NCBI RefSeq assembly: GCF_001578885.1
Contig: NZ_KQ969495.1
Location: 1,161,123 to 1,225,122, forward strand
Direction of reading: 5' to 3'
DNA length: 64,000 nucleotides
DNA from: Streptococcus sp. DD12
GTDB lineage: Bacteria; Bacillota; Bacilli; Lactobacillales; Streptococcaceae
Positions within the stretch are counted from its first letter, which is position 1, and each line of letters starts with the position of its first letter. Shown in pieces: positions 43,084 through 52,262 of the stretch. Below the pieces are notes generated by a model, which saw only the letters and a list, made by a program, of their open reading frames with translations, was not told the DNA's origin and did not search any database. Both the position numbers and the translations under genes were made by a program.

Positions 43084-43818
43084 CTATTCGTTTTCGTTCT
43101 TATTTGTCACAGTGGTTCCGATTTGTTCACCCAGAACCACACGTTTGATATTACCAGGTTGATTGAGGTTGAAGACTACCAGGTCGATATCATTGTCCAT
43201 GGACAGTGAGCTGGCCGTAGAATCCATGATTTTCAAGCCACGTTTGAGCACTTCCATGTGGGTCAACTCATCAAACTTAAAGGCGTCTGCATTTTTTCGT
43301 GGGTCGTCATTATAGACCCCGTCGACACCATTTTTAGCCATCAAAATGGCATCCGCATCAATTTCTGCTGCCCGAAGCGCAGAGGTCGTATCTGTTGAAA
43401 AATAGGGAGAACCAACACCTGCAGCAAAAATCACAATACGTCCTTTTTCCAAATGACGCAGGGCCCGTCCTCGTACATAAGGCTCAGCCACTTGTTGCAT
43501 GTTGATAGCGGTTTGTACTCGGGTATCTACACCGATTTGTTTGAGACTGTCGGCCATCACCAAGGCATTCATGACCGTTCCCAGCATACCTGTGTAGTCT
43601 GCTTGAACACGATCCATGCCCGCCTGAGAGGCAGGTTCGCCACGCCAGAGGTTTCCACCTCCGATAACTAAGGCAATCTCTACCCCAAAATCATGCACTT
43701 CTTTAATCTCACGAGCGACAGCCTGAACCGTTGGCAAATCAATACCAACACCCCTCTCACCCGCTAGGGCTTCTCCTGACAACTTAATCAAAATACGCTT
43801 ATATTTGGCTTCAACCAT
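43084..43818 (-). CDS. pyrH: UMP kinase
   Basis: A 244-aa hexameric amino-acid-kinase-fold enzyme that makes UDP from [18 protein letters not shown] (residues 7-21), GGGNLWRG, and [20 protein letters not shown] are family motifs. Two adjacent ATGs; I take 43818, as AGGAG then lies at a normal 7 nt. In S. mutans rplK-rplA directly precede pyrH-frr; here about 7.7 kb of AT-rich accessory DNA separates them. Confidence 0.97.
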
Positions 43819-43891
43819 CATTTCACTCCTTGCACGTTATCCTATTTATTTTACCACAAAAAGCATTGATAGCCTAGGAGGAAAGAAGGAT

Positions 43892-44125
43892 TTATGGAGG
43901 AAAATCTCCAAAGAAAAATGGTAGTCTAATATTTACCAATTTTTTATGAGCTAAAATATAAGCCATAGTTTTAGCGTCAGTAAGACTCCCCAAAATCATC
44001 GGGAGGACAAGCGAGCCTAGAGCCCCGCAAATACTTAAAATAACACCCAATAAAAATAATAATTGATATGGTACAATCAACTGCCTGTATTGCAGTTGAT
44101 TTGTGGAAATTCTTTTTCTTACCAT
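43892..44125 (-). pseudogene. Truncated ABC exporter (membrane-domain N terminus only)
   Basis: A 77-residue reading frame with a good start (AGGAGG before ATG 44125) whose first 50 residues, including LLFLLGVILSICGALGSLVLPMILGSLTD, look like the first membrane helix of a fused ABC exporter. The rest of the protein, including the ATPase half, is absent; the frame ends in unrelated residues close to the pyrH promoter region. It is the last gene of the leftward ABC cassette and looks like a remnant left at the left edge of the island. Confidence 0.6.
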
Positions 44126-44143
44126 AAGAACCTCCTACAATCA

Positions 44144-44902
44144 TTAGTACTCCAATTTACGATAAAATCTAAGCGAAAGCACGTAGATACTAATAAAATA
44201 CACAGCAAAGACAATTGTTGTAAGGAGAATTGCAAAACCAAAGGACAAATTATTGAGCACATTTATATAACCATTTGGAAAAATGAATCTCAGATGTGTG
44301 AGAGATGGTGCTATAAATGAGAACAGAGCAAAAACAATCCCAACCAACATCGTAATGCCGTTAGAAAAGGAAATAGAAGCAAGATTAGCAATCATAGAAC
44401 AAAGCAGAAAGACTAATACCGTCCCTGTTATGCTAACCAATGTATACTGTATATCAGCACTAGCCCTTGGCAGAAAATTTCCAGAAGTATAAGGCTGATG
44501 AATAAGATATAAATAATATGTAATCAGTGACATAATCGCCGTTAACCCGATATACAAGAATTGAAGGAGTATAATCGCACCAATTTTTGCATTTAAGACT
44601 AGACGACGACTAATGTCTTTATAGAGATACATAATTCCTGTAGTGATTTCATCTCGAAAGACGGTACTCGATATATAGATAAAGACCACGAGTGGTAGCG
44701 TAATCTGATATTGTGTCGATAATACCGCACTAAAAAATTCTAAAAAGCTCATTGAGCCTGGCGGCGCACTTAATCTCATAAAATTCGTATTAAACAAGCC
44801 GACAACAATCAAAAGCAGTGGAAAAAAACTGAATGCAAGAGCTATTTTGGATTCAGTTTTCTTCAGTAGTGCCTTAAAAAAAGGTATAGTCAAATAGTTC
44901 AT
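44144..44902 (-). CDS. ABC-2 type transporter permease
   Basis: A 252-aa membrane protein with six hydrophobic segments. The early part STVFRDEITTGIMYLYKDISRRLVLNAK (about residues 79-106) is typical of ABC-2 permeases that pair with stand-alone ATPases, such as antibiotic or bacteriocin immunity exporters. It starts 4 nt after the ATPase gene. Base composition is clearly AT-richer than in the flanking core genes. Substrate unknown. Confidence 0.82.
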   Translation of the reverse strand: MNYLTIPFFKALLKKTESKIALAFSFFPLLLIVVGLFNTNFMRLSAPPGSMSFLEFFSAVLSTQYQITLPLVVFIYISSTVFRDEITTGIMYLYKDISRRLVLNAKIGAIILLQFLYIGLTAIMSLITYYLYLIHQPYTSGNFLPRASADIQYTLVSITGTVLVFLLCSMIANLASISFSNGITMLVGIVFALFSFIAPSLTHLRFIFPNGYINVLNNLSFGFAILLTTIVFAVYFISIYVLSLRFYRKLEY

Positions 44903-44905
44903 TAT

Positions 44906-45799
44906 TTAATCCTCGCTAAAGAGTCGCTCTAAGCTTTCTTTCTTAGACAATATTGTTTTAATTGATTGAGTAGCTGCGAGTTGCTCCAAAATTTCATTGA
45001 GAGCACGATTATCTTCTACATTCGTGATTTCAACTTTATCTTCATAATAAAGCAATCCATACTCAGCTACCAATTTATCGATACTAGACACACTATTATC
45101 CTGACGCTCGTCCTCCCTATTCAGTTCAATTATAATGCTGTTTTGTTCAGACTTAAACTGACTTTGAATAACACCCTGATCAATGAAAAGGTATCTATTA
45201 CAAAGGTCCTCCAACTCTGCGAGTTGGTGACTAGAGACGATCATTGAAGTTTTATTTGTCTGTGCCCACTCTTTCAAAATCGTTAAAAGATTTTTCACAC
45301 CAATAGGATCCAGACCGACAAAAGGTTCATCAAGTAGAACAAACTTAGGCTTTGTAATCAAGGCTAAGGCCAGGGCGGTCCGCTGCTTCATCCCGAAAGA
45401 AAAATCAGATGGCTTTCTAGTTCTCGCTTCCCACAAACCTACCAAGCGTAAAGTGCTCTCAATATTTGGTAGGTACTCTTCCTTTTTATGAATTTTCAAA
45501 AACAACTTTAAATTTTCCTCCACACTAATCTGAGGAAAGTAGACGGGGTCAATCATAATACCAAAGTCATTAAGAATATTATCTTCTTTAAAAATATTTT
45601 TACCTCTGAAAAAGACTTCTCCTTCTGTTGGACGTTGTGATTTTGCCAAGAGCTTAAGCAATGTACTCTTCCCTGAGCCATTTTTCCCAACAAGTCCTAC
45701 GATATCACCTTCTTCAATGACAAAGCTAGCGTTTTTCAAAGAATAGAAATCGTTTTTCCGATATCTTTTTCCAAGGTTTTTGACCTCAATTATTTTCAT
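44906..45799 (-). CDS. ABC transporter ATP-binding protein
   Basis: A 297-aa ATPase. Walker A GLVGKNGSGKSTLLKLL (about residue 36), an unusual signature FSFGMKQRTALALAL in place of LSGGQ, as in bacteriocin-immunity and multidrug ATPases, Walker B KFVLLDEPFVGLDP, switch His SSHQLAE. An extra C-terminal domain of about 90 residues follows. ATG 45799 has GAAGGAA upstream and overlaps the previous gene by 14 nt. Works with the permease downstream. Confidence 0.88.
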   Translation of the reverse strand: MKIIEVKNLGKRYRKNDFYSLKNASFVIEEGDIVGLVGKNGSGKSTLLKLLAKSQRPTEGEVFFRGKNIFKEDNILNDFGIMIDPVYFPQISVEENLKLFLKIHKKEEYLPNIESTLRLVGLWEARTRKPSDFSFGMKQRTALALALITKPKFVLLDEPFVGLDPIGVKNLLTILKEWAQTNKTSMIVSSHQLAELEDLCNRYLFIDQGVIQSQFKSEQNSIIIELNREDERQDNSVSSIDKLVAEYGLLYYEDKVEITNVEDNRALNEILEQLAATQSIKTILSKKESLERLFSED

Positions 45800-46205
45800 A
45801 CTTGTTCCTTCTTTCAATCAACTTCAAGCATAAGAATTCTACTAAAAAATATAGCAAGGCAACAAATATAATCTGTGACAAATCCAGCAAATTCGAATTT
45901 ACTCTAATATACATTTCTCCACTTGAAATCACATTATTTTCAATAAAATTAATCCAACTTTGACTATGGTATAACAAAACTCCAATTATCAAGTACATAA
46001 TCAAAGACATTGAAGGAAAACTATAGCAATAGTTACCTTTTTTTCCTCCTTTATCAATGGCCAAAGCAGACAGCGTTATATTCATTATTATAGGAAAAAA
46101 ATAAATGATAGAAATAAAGCCCAAAATAGACATACTATCTAAAAATATAGTTGCTACAAAAACTAATATTACGTTTATCAATATAGCAGTAATCAAATAA
46201 ATCAT
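45786..46205 (-). CDS. Membrane protein of unknown function in the ABC cassette
   Basis: A 139-aa protein with four hydrophobic segments and no motif I can name. ATG 46205 has AAAAGGAG 7 nt upstream; a longer frame to 46283 overlaps the CPBP-type gene and has no site. It lies between the protease-like gene and the ATPase with tight spacing, so it belongs to the same transcript and may be an accessory membrane subunit or immunity protein. Very AT-rich. Confidence 0.65.
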   Translation of the reverse strand: MIYLITAILINVILVFVATIFLDSMSILGFISIIYFFPIIMNITLSALAIDKGGKKGNYCYSFPSMSLIMYLIIGVLLYHSQSWINFIENNVISSGEMYIRVNSNLLDLSQIIFVALLYFLVEFLCLKLIERRNKYENN

Positions 46206-46218
46206 AAAAATTCTCCTT

Positions 46219-46695
46219 TTAAGATAAACTACCAATAAGCACATTGTAGAACCAATGAAGGCCAATTGAATATTGAATTCCATACCTATCTGCCAACAAA
46301 TATAAAATGATACTTGACGGAAATTTAATTAGTAAATTTGCTAAAAAATCACCATTTAAGTGAAGAATCACGGCAAACAGCATCGAACCAATAAAAATAG
46401 CTTGTCGTCTTGGATAATAAGATAACAATGCAGAAAATAAAATATATCTAAACAGCAATTCCTCGCAAGTTGCTATTATAAACGCATGTGCAACTTCTAC
46501 GAAATTTAGAAAAAGGTAAGAAAACCCTACAATTGCTACCCCAAGTATTACAGCAACCAAAATATTTAAATTTATCTCTTTGATCTTATAACCTAATATT
46601 TTAAATATTAAAAGGGGTATAATGACAAAGCCGAAAACTGCAGAAGTCGCAATTGTTAGATTAACGAGGATTCGATTATTTATCTGATGTAACAT
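46219..46695 (-). CDS. CPBP-family intramembrane protease-like protein, possibly 5'-truncated
   Basis: A 158-aa membrane protein. CPBP (Abi) motifs: EELLFRYILFSAL (EExxxR, residue 78), FAVILHLNGDF (FxxxH, residue 108) and HWFYNVL (HxxxN, residue 147). These enzymes are common beside bacteriocin and immunity genes. Two facts suggest 5' loss: there is no ribosome-binding site before ATG 46695, and the first motif is nearer to the N terminus than usual. The start lies within 20 nt of a possible att repeat of the neighbouring integrative element. Confidence 0.72.
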   Translation of the reverse strand: MLHQINNRILVNLTIATSAVFGFVIIPLLIFKILGYKIKEINLNILVAVILGVAIVGFSYLFLNFVEVAHAFIIATCEELLFRYILFSALLSYYPRRQAIFIGSMLFAVILHLNGDFLANLLIKFPSSIILYLLADRYGIQYSIGLHWFYNVLIGSLS

Positions 46696-46702
46696 ACAGC
46701 TA

Positions 46703-46712
46703 TTGATTTAAC
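46703..46712. repeat. Possible att repeat (left)
   Basis: TTGATTTAAC, repeated exactly at 51042-51051. AACGCTAT also occurs within 15 nt of both copies. The two copies would bound a 4.3-kb element containing the XRE, Rep, DUF3173 and integrase genes. A 10-bp match in AT-rich DNA may be chance. Confidence 0.3.
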
Positions 46713-46766
46713 TAAAACGCTATGTTTTATTAGGTTCTAATAAGGTTTAAGTTACTAAAAATAGGG

Positions 46767-47249
46767 TTATTTTGTTTCTGTTGTTTCCGAATTGTTGCCA
46801 GTCTGTACTTTACTGCTGATTTCTTTTAATTCTTTTTTTAAATCTTGAACAATTGTATTCAACCACTCTTTTTGTTTATCAGTTTTAGCCAATAACTCTA
46901 CGAGTTGGTCGAGAGAATAGCCAGTTTCTTTGGTAGCAATGACTAAACTCATTTTAGTATCCCTTATGTTAGATGTTCCTATATCGATAATTTCTTCTTC
47001 TGTAAGAGTATCAAGTTCGTTTTTAAAGTTGTGCATATCTATATTTTTATCTGAATTACCGAGTAAATAATCGGAAGTTGTTCCCAAAATGGCAGTTAAC
47101 TTTATCAAATTTGTAAAACTAGGTTCTCTGTTACCTTTTTCCCAGTTCGTATATGTAACACGATTGATACTAAGTTCATCTGCAATTTGTTGTTGTGTTA
47201 ATCCTCGTCTTTTTCTAAGCGCGGATAGTCTATCTGAGAAAATTGACAT
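46767..47249 (-). CDS. XRE-family repressor of the integrative element
   Basis: A 160-aa phage-type regulator. The helix-turn-helix lies in residues 4-60 (LSALRKRRGLTQQQIADELSINRVTYTNWEKGNREPSFTNL is the region at 8-48), followed by a helical C-terminal half with many Lys and Glu. ATG 47249 has AAGGAGG upstream; a longer frame overlaps the operators. Four related 15-bp operator-like sites stand just upstream, one inside a rightward promoter, so the protein likely represses the element's rightward genes and its own. Confidence 0.85.
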   Translation of the reverse strand: MSIFSDRLSALRKRRGLTQQQIADELSINRVTYTNWEKGNREPSFTNLIKLTAILGTTSDYLLGNSDKNIDMHNFKNELDTLTEEEIIDIGTSNIRDTKMSLVIATKETGYSLDQLVELLAKTDKQKEWLNTIVQDLKKELKEISSKVQTGNNSETTETK

Positions 47250-47263
47250 AGGTCCTCCTTTTT

Positions 47264-47359
47264 GTATCGAAACGACACTTTCCTCTTGACAATGTATCAA
47301 AATGATACTAAAATAGAAGTATCAAAACGATACTTTAACAAAGTATATCATTTTGATGA
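47264..47359. promoter_or_regulatory. Four-site operator array of the XRE repressor
   Basis: Four 15-bp near-palindromes with the form GTATC-N5-GATAC: GTATCGAAACGACAC at 47264, GTATCAAAATGATAC at 47294, GTATCAAAACGATAC at 47319, and ATATCATTTTGATGA at 47345. Centre spacings are 30, 25 and 26 bp. The second site fills the spacer of a TTGACA-17-TAAAAT promoter. Confidence 0.7.
47286..47314 (+). promoter_or_regulatory. Rightward promoter of the integrative element
   Basis: TTGACA (47286-47291), 17-nt spacer that is exactly the GTATC-N5-GATAC operator plus two bases, TAAAAT (47309-47314). It points toward the repeat region and the replication genes. Confidence 0.65.
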
Positions 47360-47393
47360 TTAAATTTCAAAGGGGGTATATAACCTATGATTG

Positions 47394-47430
47394 TATAAAA
47401 AAGTCTTTGAAGAAAAAATCCTCAAAGACT
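47394..47430 (-). terminator. Hairpin with leftward T tract
   Basis: 9-bp stem AGTCTTTGA / TCAAAGACT; on the minus strand it is followed by TTTTTTATAC, the arrangement of a terminator for a leftward transcript. No leftward gene lies directly upstream, so a leftward non-coding RNA from the repeat region is possible. Confidence 0.5.
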
Positions 47431-47444
47431 AGTAATTTTGGTTT

Positions 47445-47545
47445 CTTGTTGCTAGTAGCTAGTAACTAGTAGCAGGAGCGAGCGTAAGCCAGCGACTGCG
47501 GGCACTAGTGGGCACTAGCGGGCACTAGCGGGCACTAGCAACAAG
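47445..47545. repeat. Hairpin/iteron unit 1
   Basis: A 101-bp unit closed by 12-bp inverted arms CTTGTTGCTAGT (47445-47456) and ACTAGCAACAAG (47534-47545). Inside are CTAGTAACTAGTAGC, GGAGCG...AAGCCAGCGACTGC and four tandem 10-bp repeats GGGCACTAGY ending at the right arm. Confidence 0.8.
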
Positions 47546-47548
47546 AGG

Positions 47549-47643
47549 GATAGTTACTAGTAGCTAGTAACTAGTAGCAGGAGCGAAAGCGTAAGCCAGC
47601 GACTGCGGGCACTAGTGGGCACTAGCGGGCACTAGTAACTATC
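47549..47643. repeat. Hairpin/iteron unit 2
   Basis: A 95-bp near-copy of unit 1, closed by 13-bp arms GATAGTTACTAGT (47549-47561) and ACTAGTAACTATC (47631-47643) that differ in sequence from those of unit 1 but pair perfectly with each other. It has three copies of GGGCACTAGY. Likely an origin of replication or transfer. Confidence 0.8.
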
Positions 47644-47900
47644 AGTAACATAGTATTTCACAAACTTTTAGTAGAAAAAAGACCTACAATCTCTAATAGG
47701 TAGGTCTAAAAGACATTGAAGAGCCCCTAAACCCTTGGGAGAGTAGGTGCGGAGTGCATTTTATTGAACGAAATCGCTTTGGCGCTTAGAGCCACAAGGG
47801 AACAGGGCCTGTTTGATGTCTTTTGCCGAAAGACAAGTGAATTTCAGCAAGGAAAAAAGATTGTGAAATTTATCAAACATATAGAAAAGGAAAAATTTAA
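47644..47900 (+). other. Non-coding segment with hairpins before the replication genes
   Basis: No convincing gene. It holds an 8-bp stem AGACCTAC/GTAGGTCT (about 47679-47706), a stem GTCTTT/AAAGAC near 47819-47835, and GC-richer blocks such as GGCGCTTAGAGCC that stand out in this AT-rich region. Position between iteron units and the Rep gene fits a double-strand origin or oriT, but I see no nick site that I can name. Confidence 0.4.
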
Positions 47901-48323
47901 ATGGAAAAATTTAAAATAACTGCAACACAATTTATTAAAGGTGAGTTTGAATTTGACAAGGAGCAATTTGAGGTTCCAAGAATATTAAGAGTTGATTTCT
48001 CAAAAGCAAGAGAAAGATATGAATATGCTGAGATTAATGGAGAAAGTACAAAAACTGATAAAATCGAACGGTACACGGTTTATTCTAAAGAGGGGGAATT
48101 AGCTCAGTTCCTTGAAGAAAAAGGTATGGTTTCTGAGATTGGAGAATTGAAAGACTTTGTATTTGAGATTTCAGGTGATTTGGAGAAAGTCAAAATGTTT
48201 AAAGATAAAGGTTTAACTCGTTATATCATTCTGACAGATTATGTTATTAAACCAAAATGGAATGGTTCTAGACAATGCTTTGATGGAATTAAATTAGAGG
48301 TAAGAGAATTTGAAGAGGAGTAA
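47901..48323 (+). CDS. Hypothetical protein of the integrative element
   Basis: A 140-aa soluble, charged protein (many Lys and Glu) that I do not recognise. Beta-strand-like segments alternate through it (FKITATQFIKGEFEFD, ERYTVYSKEGE, TRYIILTDYVIKP), so a small beta-barrel is possible. ATG 47901 has AAAAGG upstream. It is first in a rightward operon and its end overlaps the Rep reading frame by 14 nt, so a helper role in replication or transfer is a reasonable guess only. Confidence 0.7.
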   Translation: MEKFKITATQFIKGEFEFDKEQFEVPRILRVDFSKARERYEYAEINGESTKTDKIERYTVYSKEGELAQFLEEKGMVSEIGELKDFVFEISGDLEKVKMFKDKGLTRYIILTDYVIKPKWNGSRQCFDGIKLEVREFEEE

Positions 48324-49371
48324 TACAGTCACTATTGACTGGTTTGCTAACACAGTCAAACCAGTTGACGATGCTGATTATATTAGGTCTTGTAAATATG
48401 TAGTTGAAGAATTACTAAAATTAAATTTTAATGATTTTGTTCTTGAGTTGTACGGTACAAATCGATATAACCATCATTTTGTCTATGCAGATATTAAGGT
48501 TTACTTTTCTCTTAATGATGATAATTCAATGAATTATGGAATGGGAATATTTACCGAGATGAGGGGGCAAGGGTGTAGGCAATATGAACAATTTATGAAT
48601 GGTTCAGTTAATAACTGGAGCGCTTTAATAAGTCGGTATCTTAATGATTGCGCACATTTTACAAGGTTAGATGTAGCGAATGATATTTATGATGGAAGTT
48701 TATCTGTTCAAAAAATATACGAATATTGCAAACAAGGCTTGTGTATTAGCTATTCAAAAAAATATGAATATCACGAAACTGGTAGACTTGAAGATGGCGA
48801 AATTGTTGGAGAAACTATAAATATTGGGAAAAAAGGAAGTAACTCGCAACAGTGGGGAGTATACAATAAGCTGATGGAACAAGGAGAGAAAGCAAGCGAT
48901 ATTGGAATTAACTCATGGGTTCGATCGGAGTTGAGATTATTTGGAGATAAGGCTGTTTTATTTGCTCAAAATATGGCTTCGAAGAAACCATTGAAAGATT
49001 TGTTTTTTTCTGTATTAGCAAGTCATTATCGTTTCGTTTTATCAGATAAATACTCAATAGATACAAAAAAATCCAGAAGGGAAACTGTTTCATGGTGGAA
49101 TGAATATATCCAAACAAAGGAGCGTACAAAATTGAAAACAATCAGAGAAGAGACTACTTTGCTAAAGTCAAAAGAATTTCTAGAAACTCAAGTTGCACGA
49201 ACGCTTACTAAGGTTTATAAGGCTTATGAGAGTTCCCAAGGTGTAGAATTTGCAAATGCGTATATAAATTATTTGTTAGCTATTGGACTTGAAAAAATGA
49301 ATGATAAAGATTATACAGAAGTCAAAGAATTTTCGATTGAGCAAAATAACAATTTTACATGGGGGGAATAA
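48310..49371 (+). CDS. Rep_trans-family replication initiator (MobT-like)
   Basis: A 353-aa protein of the rolling-circle initiator/relaxase family that includes Tn916 Orf20. Hallmarks: TVTIDWFANTV at the start, HFTRLDVANDIYD (metal-binding R-x-D-x-A-x-D, about residue 117), QWGVYNKLMEQ and VRSELRLFGDKA. It would nick the element at its origin for rolling-circle copying and mobilisation. No ATG is available before the conserved start; TTG 48310 is the best choice, inside the upstream gene, which implies coupled translation. Confidence 0.85.
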   Translation: MKRSNTVTIDWFANTVKPVDDADYIRSCKYVVEELLKLNFNDFVLELYGTNRYNHHFVYADIKVYFSLNDDNSMNYGMGIFTEMRGQGCRQYEQFMNGSVNNWSALISRYLNDCAHFTRLDVANDIYDGSLSVQKIYEYCKQGLCISYSKKYEYHETGRLEDGEIVGETINIGKKGSNSQQWGVYNKLMEQGEKASDIGINSWVRSELRLFGDKAVLFAQNMASKKPLKDLFFSVLASHYRFVLSDKYSIDTKKSRRETVSWWNEYIQTKERTKLKTIREETTLLKSKEFLETQVARTLTKVYKAYESSQGVEFANAYINYLLAIGLEKMNDKDYTEVKEFSIEQNNNFTWGE

Positions 49372-49373
49372 AA

Positions 49374-49553
49374 ATGACTAAAAAGATTGTTATTTTCTTT
49401 GATAAAAGATTAGAAATGGACTTTCGTATAATACGATTTGGGAAAAGTTTGTTGATAAGCGAGGAACTAGATAATATTTATATGTTCATGAATGATAAAA
49501 ATTTATGGACTAGATGCAAAAAAAGATGCGTGAAAAATCACACATCAAAATAA
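49374..49553 (+). CDS. Small hypothetical protein of the element
   Basis: A 59-aa basic protein (KKIVIFFDKRLEMDFRIIRFGKS at the start) with a Cys pair near the end. ATG 49374 has a GGGGGAA sequence upstream and begins 2 nt after the Rep stop. I do not recognise it. It may be an accessory factor of the element or non-functional. Confidence 0.5.
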   Translation: MTKKIVIFFDKRLEMDFRIIRFGKSLLISEELDNIYMFMNDKNLWTRCKKRCVKNHTSK

Positions 49554-49593
49554 AAAACCAAAGTAATTATAACATGAAAAGGAGAAAAAAGCT

Positions 49594-49797
49594 ATGTTCG
49601 TAACAAAAGAAGATTTAAAAAAATTGGGTTTTGGAAATTATCAAGCATATAGTTTGATTAAACAAGCTAAGGCTTTGATGGTACAAAAGGGTTTTGCTTA
49701 CTATAATTCTAAGGGATTGGGTCAAGTTCCTGTGGAAGCTGTTGAGGAGATTTTGGGTACAAAATTAAATTTTAAGGAAGTGGAAGAATATGCCTAA
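49594..49797 (+). CDS. DUF3173 family protein (putative excision factor)
   Basis: A 67-aa protein with the look of a small helix-turn-helix: TKEDLKKLGFGNYQAYSLIKQAK followed by VPVEAVEEILG. DUF3173 genes stand directly before tyrosine integrases in many streptococcal ICE and IME and are thought to be excisionases or controllers of integration. ATG 49594 has AAGGAG upstream. The gene overlaps the integrase by 8 nt. Confidence 0.85.
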   Translation: MFVTKEDLKKLGFGNYQAYSLIKQAKALMVQKGFAYYNSKGLGQVPVEAVEEILGTKLNFKEVEEYA

Positions 49798-50905
49798 AAT
49801 CCCTCATGTATATTATGACAAGGCTAGTAAATCTTATTATACGGTTGCTTCTCTAGGTTTTGATGAAGTGACTGGTAAGAGAATGCAGAAAAAGAAAAGA
49901 GGGTTTAAAACACAAGCAGAAGCTAAGAAATGGTATGATGATTTTATAGCGAAACACTCAAAAAAAGCTATTGTACATGGTGCAACTTTAACGGTTGAGT
50001 TGTTCTTGGAAAAATATTTTGTACCTCACTATCAGAATAAAGTGACAGCTCGGACATTTATGACATTTTCTTCTAAGCTGAAAAGATTGAAATATTTTTA
50101 TCCTATGAAAATGGTTGATGTTAAACCTATTCATATAAAAAAATGGCATACAGATATCTTGGAAGAAGGTTTATCTAATAACTACTTAAAAGATTTACAT
50201 CAAACAGTAAAAGAATTATTTGATATGGCTCTTACTTTGGGTGTTGTCAGTGAAAATCCTGCTAGGCAGGTAGGAAATATGAAGAGGACTAGAAAAAAGG
50301 TTGATTTTTGGACAAAAGAAGAATTTGAAAAATTTATCAAAACATTTGAAAAAAATGACCTTGTAGAACATTTGAAATATACCTGTTTTCTATTTCTCTT
50401 TATGACAGGATTGAGGATTAGCGAATTACAAGCCTTAACGTGGGAAGATGTTGATTTTGAAAATAAAGCTGTACAAGTCAATAAGTCTATGTTTTATCAA
50501 AATAAAAATAATTGGCAAATTAACCCCACAAAAACTTTTTCAAGTAATAGAAAAATCTATCTTGATGCCATGACGATTAAGGCACTATCCTCATGGAAAG
50601 AACATCAGAAACAGCTAGGAAAAATAAGTTTTGTCTTTTCTTATAACTGTTTACCTGTGACTAAGACAATGCTTGCTAATAGCATGAAGAAACACGGAGA
50701 AATAGCAGGAGTCAAAAGTATTCGTATACATGATTTAAGGCACTCCCACGCAAGTCTATTGCTATCTTTGGGTATGAATGACCTAGAACTTAAAAATAGG
50801 CTAGGACATGCGGATATACAGACGACTTTAGGAGTATATTCTCATCTTCGCCCTTCTGCAATGAAAGAGGTGGCGGATAAACTAGAGGGGGTAATATCGC
50901 TTTAG
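49790..50905 (+). CDS. int: Tyrosine-type site-specific integrase
   Basis: A 371-aa recombinase. N-terminal arm-binding domain (about residues 1-60, YYTVASLGFDEVTGKRMQKKKRGF), a SAM-like core-binding domain (about 65-155), and the catalytic domain with Arg in TGLRISELQALTW (about residue 208), HDLRHSHASLLLSLG (about residue 322) and LGHADIQTTLGVYSHL (Tyr nucleophile, about 355). All catalytic residues are present, so it could be active. Closest in type to Tn916/IME integrases with DUF3173. Confidence 0.95.
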   Translation: MPKIPHVYYDKASKSYYTVASLGFDEVTGKRMQKKKRGFKTQAEAKKWYDDFIAKHSKKAIVHGATLTVELFLEKYFVPHYQNKVTARTFMTFSSKLKRLKYFYPMKMVDVKPIHIKKWHTDILEEGLSNNYLKDLHQTVKELFDMALTLGVVSENPARQVGNMKRTRKKVDFWTKEEFEKFIKTFEKNDLVEHLKYTCFLFLFMTGLRISELQALTWEDVDFENKAVQVNKSMFYQNKNNWQINPTKTFSSNRKIYLDAMTIKALSSWKEHQKQLGKISFVFSYNCLPVTKTMLANSMKKHGEIAGVKSIRIHDLRHSHASLLLSLGMNDLELKNRLGHADIQTTLGVYSHLRPSAMKEVADKLEGVISL

Positions 50906-50918
50906 TTTTAATCACGGC

Positions 50919-50951
50919 TTTCGTATCACTAGCGAAGTCTGTTATACGAAA
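50919..50951. repeat. Inverted repeat next to the integrase
   Basis: TTTCGTAT (50919-50926) and ATACGAAA (50944-50951), 17 nt apart. It may be an integrase arm- or core-type site of the element's right end. Confidence 0.35.
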
Positions 50952-50962
50952 ACGGAGATTAT

Positions 50963-50999
50963 AAAAAGGTAGCAAGATTATATCTTACTACCTTTTTGT
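50963..50999 (+). terminator. Intrinsic terminator of the integrase operon
   Basis: 10-bp stem AAAAAGGTAG / CTACCTTTTT followed by G-TT. Symmetric, could work both ways. Confidence 0.8.
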
Positions 51000-51041
51000 T
51001 GCCAAAATGTTTCCACTCGGCTAGTGTTAAGTGTTTAAACG

Positions 51042-51051
51042 TTGATTTAAC
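51042..51051. repeat. Possible att repeat (right)
   Basis: TTGATTTAAC, the second copy of the repeat at 46703-46712, here followed at once by GCTAT. Confidence 0.3.
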
Positions 51052-51066
51052 GCTATTTTCACTAAT

Positions 51067-51189
51067 TTAACTCTTATTTATCTGAAATAAGAGTAATATC
51101 ATACTCCCAACATTCATAAATAATCCAGCAAGTATCACAACACATAGCGATATTGTTATTACCTCAAACCGCTTCTTTACCTTAATCAT
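51067..51189 (-). CDS. 40-aa hydrophobic peptide
   Basis: A 40-residue reading frame with a basic start (MIKVKKRFE), one long hydrophobic helix (about residues 9-36) and a short polar end (QINKS). This is the shape of small membrane peptides, type I toxins or peptide-signal precursors. A GAAGTGA before ATG 51189 is only a weak ribosome-binding site, and a terminator lies between it and the stronger 29-aa gene, so expression would need readthrough. No family recognised. Confidence 0.5.
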   Translation of the reverse strand: MIKVKKRFEVITISLCVVILAGLFMNVGSMILLLFQINKS

Positions 51190-51213
51190 AATAAATCACT
51201 TCATCTCACACTA

Positions 51214-51251
51214 ATAAAAAAGTTGAGAGAAGCAACTACCTTTCTCTCAAC
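51214..51251 (-). terminator. Intrinsic terminator of the 29-aa peptide transcript
   Basis: Perfect 10-bp stem GTTGAGAGAA / TTCTCTCAAC followed by TTTTTTATT on the minus strand. Confidence 0.85.
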
Positions 51252-51295
51252 TACAACTATAGTGACAACACATCTAGTAAACTAGTAGGTTTACA

Positions 51296-51385
51296 TTACC
51301 AGTGCCACTTCTTACCTCTGTACCCAAAAGAAACGATACCTAAGTTTACTTCATGGCGTGAAAATAACCTTTTAAGGAACCGCAT
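51296..51385 (-). CDS. 29-aa basic aromatic peptide with strong expression signals
   Basis: A complete small gene: consensus promoter, AAAGGAGG 8 nt before ATG 51385, stop, and terminator, on a transcript of roughly 220 nt. The peptide begins MRFLKRLFSRHEV, strongly basic and amphipathic, and ends SFGYRGKKWHW with two Trp. It has no double-glycine leader, no Cys, and does not match SHP or XIP pheromones that I know. A bacteriocin-like, signal or toxin peptide is possible. The gene is too short for normal gene finders. Confidence 0.65.
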   Translation of the reverse strand: MRFLKRLFSRHEVNLGIVSFGYRGKKWHW

Positions 51386-51413
51386 GATACTCGCCTCCTT
51401 TCATCAATTATTT

Positions 51414-51425
51414 TAGGTTAACCTA
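51414..51425. promoter_or_regulatory. Perfect 12-bp palindrome in the peptide leader
   Basis: TAGGTTAACCTA, about 10-25 nt downstream of the predicted start of the peptide transcript; a possible operator. Confidence 0.4.
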
Positions 51426-51442
51426 TTTCCTTTTTTCATACC

Positions 51443-51471
51443 ATTATATTGTAATCGTTTTCTTTTGTCAA
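51443..51471 (-). promoter_or_regulatory. Consensus promoter of the 29-aa peptide gene with a cre site
   Basis: Minus strand TTGACA (51471-51466), 17-nt spacer, TATAAT (51448-51443): a perfect sigma-A promoter. The spacer contains, on the plus strand, TGTAATCGTTTTCT (51450-51463), which fits the cre consensus except for the last base. CcpA binding there would block the polymerase. Confidence 0.75.
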
Positions 51472-51572
51472 ATTTAAAACGCTTCCCCAATATTTATTTT
51501 AAAAAATTAAATATACCGATTTTTTGAGAAAGCAAAAATCCCCCAGGTTTCCCTGAGAGACTTTCTCTTTGC

Positions 51573-52262
51573 TTACAATGAGTTTGCATCTACCTTGATA
51601 CCAACACCTTGTGTGGTAGAGATAGAAAGGTTTTCGATGTAAGTTCCTTTAGCAGAAGCTGGTTTTGCTTTTACGATAACATCGTTGAAAGCTTTAAAGT
51701 TTTCCAACAATTTGTCTGCATCAAATGAAACTTTACCGATGATAGCTTGCACGTTACCTGCACGGTCTGCACGGTAAGTGATTTTACCACCTTTAGACTC
51801 TTCAACGGCTTTAGTAACATCCATTGTTACGGTACCAGTTTTAGGGTTTGGCATGAGGTTACGTGGTCCAAGGACACGTCCAAGACGACCAACAACAGCC
51901 ATCATATCTGGTGTTGCGATAACCACGTCAAAGTCTAACCAACCACCGTTGATTTTAGCGACAAGGTCTTCTTCACCGACAAAGTCAGCACCAGCTGCTT
52001 TAGCTTCTTCAGCTTTAGCACCACGCGCAAAGACCAAGACACGTTGTGTTTTACCAGAACCGTTTGGCAAAACCATTGCCCCACGGATTTGTTGGTCTGC
52101 TTGTTTTACGTCGATGTTGAGGTTGTATGCTACTTCAACAGTTGCGTCAAATTTTGCAAAGTTTGTTTCTTTTGCCAAAGCGATTGCTTCTTCAGCAGTG
52201 TACGCTTTTGTTTTGTCTACTTTTTCCAAAGCAGCACGTAATTGTTTGCTTTTTTTAGCCAT
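51573..52262 (-). CDS. rplA: 50S ribosomal protein L1
   Basis: A 229-aa ribosomal protein that forms the L1 stalk and can repress its own mRNA. Typical stretches: [48 protein letters not shown] and [18 protein letters not shown] 52262 has CAAGGAGA upstream. Normal length. It is 95 nt after rplK. Confidence 0.98.

What the first reader, a model, noticed from the sequence alone, without database searches (positions are those of the whole stretch)
43850..51560. A possible peptide/transporter locus split by an integrative element
Between rplA and pyrH, all on the minus strand, lie two tiny peptide genes (51296-51385 and 51067-51189), then a 4.3-kb integrative element, then a CPBP-type protease, a membrane protein, an ABC ATPase, an ABC permease and an exporter fragment. 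Removing the element between the two TTGATTTAAC repeats would place the second peptide gene about 25 nt upstream of the protease gene. The protease gene has no ribosome-binding site or promoter of its own in the present arrangement. Protease plus ABC genes next to short peptides is a common bacteriocin or peptide-signal layout. The joining is inference.
Basis: partly seen in the sequence, partly recalled or inferred. Interest (0 to 1): 0.72.

Follow-up and report, generated by a model that had tools for sequence, protein, structure and literature searches.

The report
Mobile element inserted inside protease gene
A mobile DNA element has landed inside the protease gene of a small peptide-and-transporter cassette in a streptococcus, so the supposed second peptide is really the cut-off front end of that protease, while the first peptide belongs to a conserved peptide family that accompanies this cassette in many bacteria.

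Summary
The locus exists and is split by an integrative element, but key details were misread.

(1) The junction is not TTGATTTAAC. Four sister elements in other streptococci sit at the 3' end of rpmG, and that sequence lies inside their ends. The window's repeat is TTATTTATCTGA, at 46676-46687 and 51074-51085.

(2) That junction lies inside the CPBP gene. 'Peptide 2' (51067-51189) is its severed first membrane helix: the two pieces tile the CPBP profile (4-39 and 45-193), share codon phase, and match one intact 198-aa Staphylococcus simulans protein. The break falls in the loop after helix 1.

(3) Peptide 1 is real. Its short cationic family is in 23 of 284 Streptococcus genomes; all 23 are among the 27 with MsaC over its cut-off, none among the other 257.

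(4) Streptococcus sp. 121 and an S. simulans plasmid carry the uninterrupted order peptide-CPBP-MsaC-ATPase-permease.

Best reading: a probably acquired peptide export/immunity cassette, perhaps of a leaderless bacteriocin (function inferred), disabled or rewired by off-target insertion of an rpmG-type mobilizable element.

The parts
51443..51471 (-). Promoter of the peptide gene: TTGACA, 17 nt, TATAAT (12 of 12)
   Evidence: the only 12-of-12 site listed in 43800-51700, although sites of 9 or more of 12 are no commoner than in shuffles (29 against a mean of 30.6)
51296..51385 (-). Peptide gene (pep1), 29 aa, MRFLKRLFSRHEVNLGIVSFGYRGKKWHW, member of a conserved cationic peptide family
   Evidence: E 4.9e-15 to the iterated family model; own genome E 3.8e-15; it is one of the 13 seeds
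51215..51252 (-). Hairpin plus U-tract between the peptide gene and CPBP, likely attenuator/terminator
   Evidence: z -4.05, 1 of 200 shuffles as stable; same position in L101 (z -4.93) and L211 (z -2.88). The consensus scan did not list it.
51067..51189 (-). 'Peptide 2' ORF = severed 5' end of the CPBP gene (CPBP codons up to about 51074; the last residues and stop come from the element)
   Evidence: sister elements share the element sequence out to 51080-51083
51074..51085 (.). Right attachment repeat TTATTTATCTGA
46688..51073 (.). Integrative and mobilizable element (body)
51042..51051 (.). TTGATTTAAC, right copy: subterminal and internal to the element
   Evidence: inside the right end of three sister elements at rpmG (G234, G265, G045); one base different in G181
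49790..50905 (+). Tyrosine integrase, 371 aa (PF00589, PF14657, PF14659)
49594..49797 (+). DUF3173 protein, 67 aa; excisionase-like by position
   Evidence: excisionase role inferred from the relaxase-excisionase-integrase order in PMC5357655 (passages)
48310..49371 (+). Rep_trans (PF02486) relaxase/rolling-circle initiator, 353 aa
   Evidence: 167.5 bits, cut-off 29.6; MobT equivalog 101 bits, below cut-off 600
47901..48323 (+). Element ORF of unknown function, 140 aa
   Evidence: no Pfam match
46767..47300 (-). Element HTH repressor-like gene, directly upstream of and co-oriented with the CPBP 3' piece
   Evidence: PF01381, 54.9 bits; no terminator-like site listed between it and the CPBP piece
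46703..46712 (.). TTGATTTAAC, left copy: subterminal and internal to the element
   Evidence: sister elements carry CTATTGATTTAAC (G234) and CTATTGCTTTAAC (G045) inside the left end
46676..46687 (.). Left attachment repeat TTATTTATCTGA
   Evidence: (similarity to the G234 element starts at 46676)
46219..46687 (-). 3' part of the CPBP gene with the EELLFR and HWFYN motifs (reads as a 158-aa ORF 46219-46695 whose ATG is element DNA)
   Evidence: (PF02517, 42.7 bits)
45786..46205 (-). MsaC-type membrane protein (ORF listed from 46283; likely ATG at 46205 behind AAGGAG)
   Evidence: NF038270, 130.3 bits, cut-off 45; start read
44906..45799 (-). ABC transporter ATPase (ORF listed from a TTG at 45817)
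   Evidence: 72% identical to G083 and 60% to Streptococcus sp. 121
44144..44902 (-). ABC permease, 252 aa
   Evidence: 37% over 246 aa to the S. simulans plasmid protein after the ATPase
43892..44125 (-). N-terminal remnant of an MsbA-like ABC exporter, 77 aa

Best explanation
A low-G+C peptide/ABC cassette sits between rplA and pyrH, probably by acquisition. Its order was: peptide gene under a strong promoter, attenuator hairpin, CPBP membrane protease, MsaC membrane protein, ATPase, permease, then an exporter now reduced to an N-terminal remnant. An integrative and mobilizable element, whose close relatives insert at the 3' end of rpmG, integrated off-target at a TAAATAA-containing site in the CPBP gene, in the loop after its first membrane helix. 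Shown: repeats, gene content, shared codon phase, tiling on CPBP, peptide family linkage, and the rpmG site of four sister elements. Inferred: the peptide is secreted and antimicrobial (leaderless-bacteriocin-like), and CPBP, MsaC and the ABC pair export it or protect the producer. The insertion would then disable CPBP and cut the downstream genes off from the peptide promoter, leaving them at most to read-through from the element's repressor gene.
For: Sister elements: G234, G265, G045 and G181 share the right end out to 51080-51083 and abut an L33 (rpmG) gene, 4 of 4; the left ends of G234 and G045 show TTATTTAACCTC/TTACTTAACCTC where the window has TTATTTATCTGA. The 12-bp repeat is in the same codon phase in both pieces: offsets 104 and 8 from the two start codons, both 2 modulo 3 (coordinates). 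CPBP profile from 21 intact homologues: 'peptide 2' at 4-39 with 13.6 bits (best of 2000 shuffles 10.2; best of 548 other small window ORFs 6.2), C piece at 45-193 with 141 bits. Same intact S. simulans protein: residues 3-41 (33%, E 5.8e-6) and 53-194 (40.6%). tblastn of the 40-aa ORF also hits in place and in frame ahead of CPBP in L012 (E 0.002), L015 (0.007) and L013 (0.035). Multiple alignment places the pieces end to end, one column off. Model of the intact relative: helix 1 is residues 5-34 and helix 2 starts at 40 (pLDDT 94.2). Uninterrupted order in L088/L101 and L211. Peptide family in 23 of 27 MsaC-positive and 0 of 257 other genomes (Fisher p 4e-30); 113 peptide hits, none on the opposite strand, among 17,361 small ORFs. 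Cassette G+C 33.5% against 45.1% for the window.
Against: No same-species genome without the element was available. The peptide-2 profile match alone is modest (13.6 bits). Its blastp match to L101 fell at the wrong place (residues 64-99, E 0.19), and in the other six of nine loci searched by tblastn it gave no convincing in-place hit (in L017 the best hit was elsewhere, E 0.003). The pieces fit the profile with a one-position offset. Two further genomes with a similar element end (G008 at 72%, G332 at 79% over short stretches) show no rpmG in the stretch tested, so rpmG is not proven to be the only usual site. No activity or export data exist for any peptide of this family in any call. The exporter is a remnant here, so secretion by this cassette alone is uncertain. 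The association test used a model seeded from some of the same loci.
Confidence: 0.85

Rival explanations
1. One reading: two independent peptide genes, with the element inserted in the intergenic space at TTGATTTAAC just upstream of a complete CPBP gene.
For: The 10-bp repeats exist; 'peptide 2' is an open ORF with its own ATG.
Against: The repeats lie inside the ends of sister elements, and G045 does not even repeat the sequence perfectly. 'Peptide 2' matches CPBP positions 4-39 and was not among the hits of the peptide family model. Related loci mostly have an intact CPBP of 185-205 aa (21 of 27), so a 158-aa CPBP without helix 1 would be the exception.
Confidence: 0.03
2. The peptide is a secreted signal (pheromone) and the CPBP/ABC proteins process and transport it, rather than a bacteriocin with export and immunity genes.
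For: CPBP proteases and short peptides fit processing and signalling; one related locus (L014) has a response regulator and a sensor kinase upstream.
Against: Many loci carry 2 to 8 tandem peptide genes, often nearly identical, as expected of a product made in quantity. Peptides are strongly cationic (net charge +3 to +10, mean 6.8, of 45 distinct forms up to 35 aa). Apart from the element's own repressor no regulator lies between rplA and pyrH in the window. In larger cassettes an exporter is present (22 of 27 loci with an exporter ORF hit, two of them partial), which fits export of either kind of peptide.
Confidence: 0.25
3. The split CPBP still works, either as two separately translated pieces (helix 1 plus catalytic core) or because the element excises and restores the gene, so that the element acts as a reversible switch.
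For: The break falls in the loop between helices 1 and 2; the EExxxR and HxxxN motifs are in the larger piece; both pieces are open; the repeats are perfect and in the same phase.
Against: The C piece has no Shine-Dalgarno sequence and uses an element-derived ATG; CPBP is broken or absent in 5 of 27 related loci, which suggests it can be lost; excision was not observed in any data here.
Confidence: 0.1
4. The peptide acts inside the cell, as a toxin, or like phenol-soluble modulins on other cells, with the ABC pair as a dedicated pump (Pmt-like).
For: The ATPase has sub-threshold similarity to PmtC (120.6 bits against a cut-off of 375); the peptides are short and show no evident leader.
Against: PmtC is only one of many ABC families matched, and the lantibiotic-protection model scores higher (TIGR03740, 156 bits, below its cut-off of 309.75).
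Confidence: 0.1

Closest known systems
Streptococcal integrative and mobilizable elements at the 3' end of rpmG (PMC5357655, passages read)
   Same: Tyrosine integrase gene next to the rpmG-proximal end, Rep_trans (PF02486) relaxase, compact layout; four sisters sit at rpmG
   Different: This copy sits inside a CPBP gene; its site reads GATAAATAA, whereas the sisters' rpmG reads GTTAAATAA and the own genome's unoccupied rpmG reads GTAAAATAA
MsaC-containing ABC cassettes (NCBIfam NF038270, 'Msa family membrane protein')
   Same: MsaC over the curated cut-off, CPBP, ATPase, permease and the short peptide upstream
   Different: One peptide gene, one permease, exporter reduced to a remnant, CPBP interrupted; most streptococcal cassettes have two permeases, an exporter and often several peptide genes
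Leaderless bacteriocin clusters (lacticin Q, aureocin A53, LsbB; recalled) and lantibiotic-protection ABC transporters (TIGR03740)
   Same: Short cationic peptide without an evident leader beside ABC and membrane genes; the ATPase's best NCBIfam model is TIGR03740, below its cut-off
   Different: No NCBIfam match for the 13 peptides scanned and only weak hits of single members in Pfam; no activity data
CPBP (CAAX protease-like) proteins of bacteriocin loci, e.g. SilX of S. anginosus (PMC9298176, seen in a search listing with the start of its abstract)
   Same: PF02517 domain with EExxxR and HxxxN motifs beside a peptide locus
   Different: Severed after helix 1 by the element

Membership tests
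rpmG-type streptococcal IME | Tyrosine integrase at the rpmG-proximal end | tested here: met
   PF00589 integrase at 49790-50905 beside the right end; sisters abut rpmG there. The Tyr_10 family assignment of PMC5357655 was not tested.
rpmG-type streptococcal IME | Relaxase with PF02486 | tested here: met
   167.5 bits against a cut-off of 29.6
rpmG-type streptococcal IME | NCBIfam MobT equivalog (NF041493) | tested here: not met
   101 bits against a cut-off of 600
rpmG-type streptococcal IME | Integrated at the 3' end of rpmG | tested here: not met
   The element is in the CPBP gene; the genome's own rpmG is intact and the element end has one match in the genome
CPBP / Rce1-like protease (PF02517) | PF02517 over the gathering score | tested here: met
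   42.7 bits against 22.4
CPBP / Rce1-like protease (PF02517) | Complete multi-helix membrane fold | tested here: not met
   Helix 1 is severed; the intact relative L101 is modelled with seven helices. Its PDB fold search gave no match at E 0.001 or better; the top hit was SpdC, TM 0.52, E 1.1.
Msa-type peptide/ABC cassette | MsaC over the NF038270 cut-off | tested here: met
   130.3 bits against 45
Msa-type peptide/ABC cassette | Family peptide upstream on the same strand | tested here: met
Msa-type peptide/ABC cassette | Two permeases and an exporter, as in most streptococcal members | tested here: not met
   One permease and an exporter remnant; L088 and L211 also have no exporter next to the permease
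Leaderless bacteriocin | No leader, no double-glycine site | tested here: inconclusive
   The 13 aligned peptides match from their Met over the whole length without a GG motif, but processing cannot be seen from sequence
Leaderless bacteriocin | Antimicrobial activity | not testable with these tools
   needs the peptide

The most novel reading that the evidence does not exclude
The short peptides (strongly cationic, core motif around N-L/V-G-I, often in tandem copies) are an undescribed class of leaderless secreted antimicrobial peptides served by a dedicated MsaC-ABC machine, usually with a CPBP protease. They would occur in Streptococcus, Staphylococcus, Siminovitchia and Lachnospiraceae (peptide and MsaC both found), and in Bombilactobacillus (peptide beside the ATPase; only broken CPBP and partial MsaC similarity). 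The CPBP component would be a repeated target of loss or of mobile-element capture.
Probability: 0.4. Interest if true: 0.65.

Novelty: new variant of a known kind. Interest (0 to 1): 0.42.

Why it matters
It corrects a plausible misreading: a mobile element can turn the first helix of a membrane protein into what looks like a peptide gene. It also ties a short peptide family, unmatched in the NCBIfam and Pfam scans made here apart from weak single hits, to the MsaC/CPBP/ABC cassette: 23 of 27 MsaC-positive and 0 of 257 other Streptococcus genomes. That makes a directly testable candidate class of bacteriocins or signals. The insertion gives a natural CPBP disruption, and an off-target site that can be compared with rpmG to learn the integrase's core requirement.

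Tried and rejected
Rejected: TTGATTTAAC as the attachment repeat; 'peptide 2' as a peptide gene; a lost first permease (the single permease is closer to permease 1 in 7 of 8 loci). Most other hits lie at about 51443-51478 and 50960-50997, in what look like promoter and terminator stretches, and were not pursued. G008 and G332 match the element end weakly; no rpmG was found in the stretches tested, and their sites stay unresolved (the G332 flank reads GAGGATAAATAA, like the CPBP site, but no clear ORF ends there).

Led nowhere: plasmid DNA search at high identity (no match); paper searches for MsaC, 'Msa family', peptide strings and layout words, in whose listings I saw no description of this cassette; only the held open-access library was searched and only listings were seen. 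The PDB fold search gave no confident match. The Bifidobacterium loci (L130, L133, L138) matched by ATPase; the peptide model found nothing in them at E 0.05. Of the 80 loci, 20 carry the peptide; many of the rest are more distant ABC ATPases, and several loci duplicate genomes already among the 27.

Mended after a second look: rpmG was checked by search in all four sister genomes, the S. simulans gene after the ATPase was tested as a permease relative, and MsaC was tested in five non-streptococcal peptide loci (5 of 5 over the cut-off).

Speculation not tested: that the A-for-T difference in the own genome's rpmG (GTAAAATAA) pushed the element to the CPBP site.


Full report
What is there. 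Read on the minus strand between rplA and pyrH, the order is: a 29-aa ORF (51296-51385), a 40-aa ORF (51067-51189), an element of about 4.4 kb, a 158-aa CPBP-type ORF (PF02517, 42.7 bits), an MsaC-type membrane protein (NF038270, 130 bits against a cut-off of 45), an ABC ATPase, a permease and a 77-aa exporter remnant (36.8% over 38 aa to an exporter N-terminus). The cassette has 33.5% G+C, the element 33.2%, the window 45.1%. The element carries a tyrosine integrase, a DUF3173 protein, a Rep_trans (PF02486) relaxase, an unknown ORF and an HTH repressor.

The junction. A search of 284 Streptococcus genomes with window 50960-51580 found 22 genomes with some match, the own one included. In 4 of 4 the element abuts the 3' end of an L33 (rpmG) gene. 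Two more (G008 at 72%, G332 at 79%) match the end over short stretches; no rpmG was found in the stretches tested, and their sites are unresolved. The remaining matches are short and mostly lie elsewhere in the query. The left ends read TTATTTAACCTCTGTAACATATAGC (G234) and TTACTTAACCTCTGTAATATACATC (G045), against TTATTTATCTGATGTAACATACAGC in the window; left ends of G265 and G181 were not read. So the window's attachment repeat is TTATTTATCTGA, 12 bp, at 46676-46687 and 51074-51085. TTGATTTAAC lies inside the ends; G045 has CTATTGCTTTAAC on the left, so it is not even a perfect repeat there. In base-shuffled 121-nt flanks a common word of 12 or more appeared in 11 of 2000 trials and of 10 or more in 68 of 2000.

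The second 'peptide' is the CPBP N-terminus. The repeat starts 104 nt after the 40-aa ORF's ATG and 8 nt after the 158-aa ORF's ATG, the same codon phase (coordinates). A profile from 21 intact CPBP proteins of related loci matches the 40-aa ORF at positions 4-39 (13.6 bits) and the 158-aa ORF at 45-193 (141 bits). Of 2000 shuffles of the 40-aa ORF the best scored 10.2, and of 548 other small window ORFs the best scored 6.2. Against the S. simulans plasmid protein of 198 aa the pieces match residues 3-41 (33% identity, E 5.8e-6) and 53-194 (40.6%). Against Streptococcus sp. 121 (190 aa) the C piece matches 51-188 at 51%, but the 40-aa ORF gave only a misplaced match at 64-99, E 0.19. In tblastn against nine related loci the 40-aa ORF hit in place and in frame ahead of CPBP in three (L012 E 0.002, L015 0.007, L013 0.035) and not convincingly in the other six. 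In a MAFFT alignment of 19 rows the two pieces fall end to end, one column off. The model of the sp. 121 protein (pLDDT 94.2, pTM 0.90) has helix 1 at 5-34 and helix 2 from 40; the break corresponds to that loop in the alignment. The EExxxR and HxxxN motifs are in the larger piece. Its ATG is in element DNA that the G234 sister also carries.

Uninterrupted relatives. Streptococcus sp. 121 (L088 = L101) has a 29-aa peptide, about 100 nt, then CPBP, MsaC, ATPase and permease (MsaC over its cut-off in that genome, G307). The S. simulans plasmid NZ_CP094708.1 has the peptide at L211 4827-4919 (E 2e-7), then CPBP, 'Msa family membrane protein', ATPase and a protein annotated hypothetical that is 37% identical over 246 aa to the window permease. 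Its table lists no gene over the peptide, though that table is known to be incomplete. In 27 further streptococcal MsaC loci (26 genomes), CPBP is 185-205 aa in 21, read as one 339-aa ORF in one (L089), and broken or absent in five (L011, L073, L075, L076, L086). Most have two permeases, and 22 of 27 have an exporter ORF hit (partial in L014 and L086).

The peptide family. Peptide 1 aligns over its whole length with peptides of the related loci. A model seeded with 13 of them and iterated found 113 small ORFs in 108 sequences (27 loci, an 11-kb part of the window and 80 loci, some of them duplicates), all on the cassette strand and none on the other, among 17,361 ORFs of 18-60 aa. Members include Staphylococcus caeli, S. 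nepalensis, S. equorum, Bombilactobacillus, Siminovitchia and a Lachnospiraceae MAG. In five of these (all but Bombilactobacillus) the ORF before the ATPase is MsaC over its cut-off, 5 of 5 tested; in four an intact CPBP was found, and Siminovitchia has only a 102-aa CPBP-like ORF. Of 45 distinct forms up to 35 aa, lengths are 23-34 and net charge +3 to +10, 3 with a cysteine; longer forms were left out of that count and appear to use upstream starts. Over whole genomes the family is in 23 of 284; all 23 are among the 27 over the MsaC cut-off, and none is among the other 257, three of which have a sub-threshold MsaC match (Fisher p 4e-30; the model was seeded from part of these loci). Two of four non-Streptococcus MsaC loci of the order also have a clear peptide (L232 E 5.4e-5, L234 E 4.2e-8). 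NCBIfam gave no match and Pfam only weak hits of single members, the best DUF4236 at E 0.0077.

Expression. The peptide gene has a 12-of-12 promoter at 51471-51443, although weaker sites are at chance frequency. A hairpin with a U-tract lies between the peptide gene and CPBP in the window, in L101 and in L211 (z -4.05, -4.93, -2.88), which fits an attenuator that makes more peptide than downstream mRNA; the consensus scan did not list the window hairpin. After the insertion, the downstream genes lie directly behind the element's repressor gene on the same strand, with no terminator-like site listed between. Read-through is possible but not shown.

Why this site. Sister rpmG ends read GTTAAATAA and the CPBP site GATAAATAA. 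The own genome's rpmG reads GTAAAATAA, and the element end has a single match in the genome. The CPBP site keeps TAAATAA whole while the own rpmG does not. That this steered the insertion is inference.

The chromosomal site. Of 10 relatives' regions fetched around pyrH, 8 had rplA within the region, with gaps from about 170 nt to 5.3 kb, and none had the cassette. Acquisition at this place seems recent or rare, and no empty-site comparison within the species was possible.

Function. The layout of a strongly promoted cationic peptide, an attenuator, and CPBP plus ABC membrane genes is most like a bacteriocin with export and immunity functions. The ATPase's best NCBIfam model is lantibiotic protection, below its cut-off. 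Activity, processing and secretion are untested, and a signalling role remains open. Literature: PMC5357655 was read in passages; other papers were seen in search listings only.

Noticed in passing
47448-47645: Clustered repeats in the element (GGGCACTAGT/C units and two copies of a 34-nt unit GTTGCTAGTAGCTAGTAACTAGTAGCAGGAGCGA) between the repressor and the rightward genes; could be an origin or control region.
   Followed up: no
L179 (own rpmG, G000:C1:1260552-1260698): The own genome's rpmG 3' end reads GTAAAATAA, not the GTTAAATAA of genomes carrying the sister elements, and is followed by CTCTACCTTTTGCTCTACCTTTT, which resembles sequence beside another element in G008.
   Followed up: partly
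L011, L073, L075, L076, L086: CPBP is broken or missing in 5 of 27 related streptococcal cassettes, which suggests it is often lost.
   Followed up: partly
L081 / L107 (Streptococcus cristatus A53): Eight tandem, nearly identical copies of the peptide gene at 106-nt spacing; S. mitis 321A (L108) has three and G036 (L017) six.
   Followed up: no
L014:351-2346: A response regulator and a sensor kinase lie upstream of the related cassette, a possible peptide-sensing system (names from reading the translations).
   Followed up: no
L034 (G332), around 1532: A similar element end abuts a flank reading GAGGATAAATAA that is not rpmG, so other sites with TAAATAA may be used.
   Followed up: partly
L213-L222: The rplA-pyrH interval is 170-235 nt in some relatives and up to about 5 kb in others with different genes, so it may be an insertion hotspot.
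   Followed up: partly
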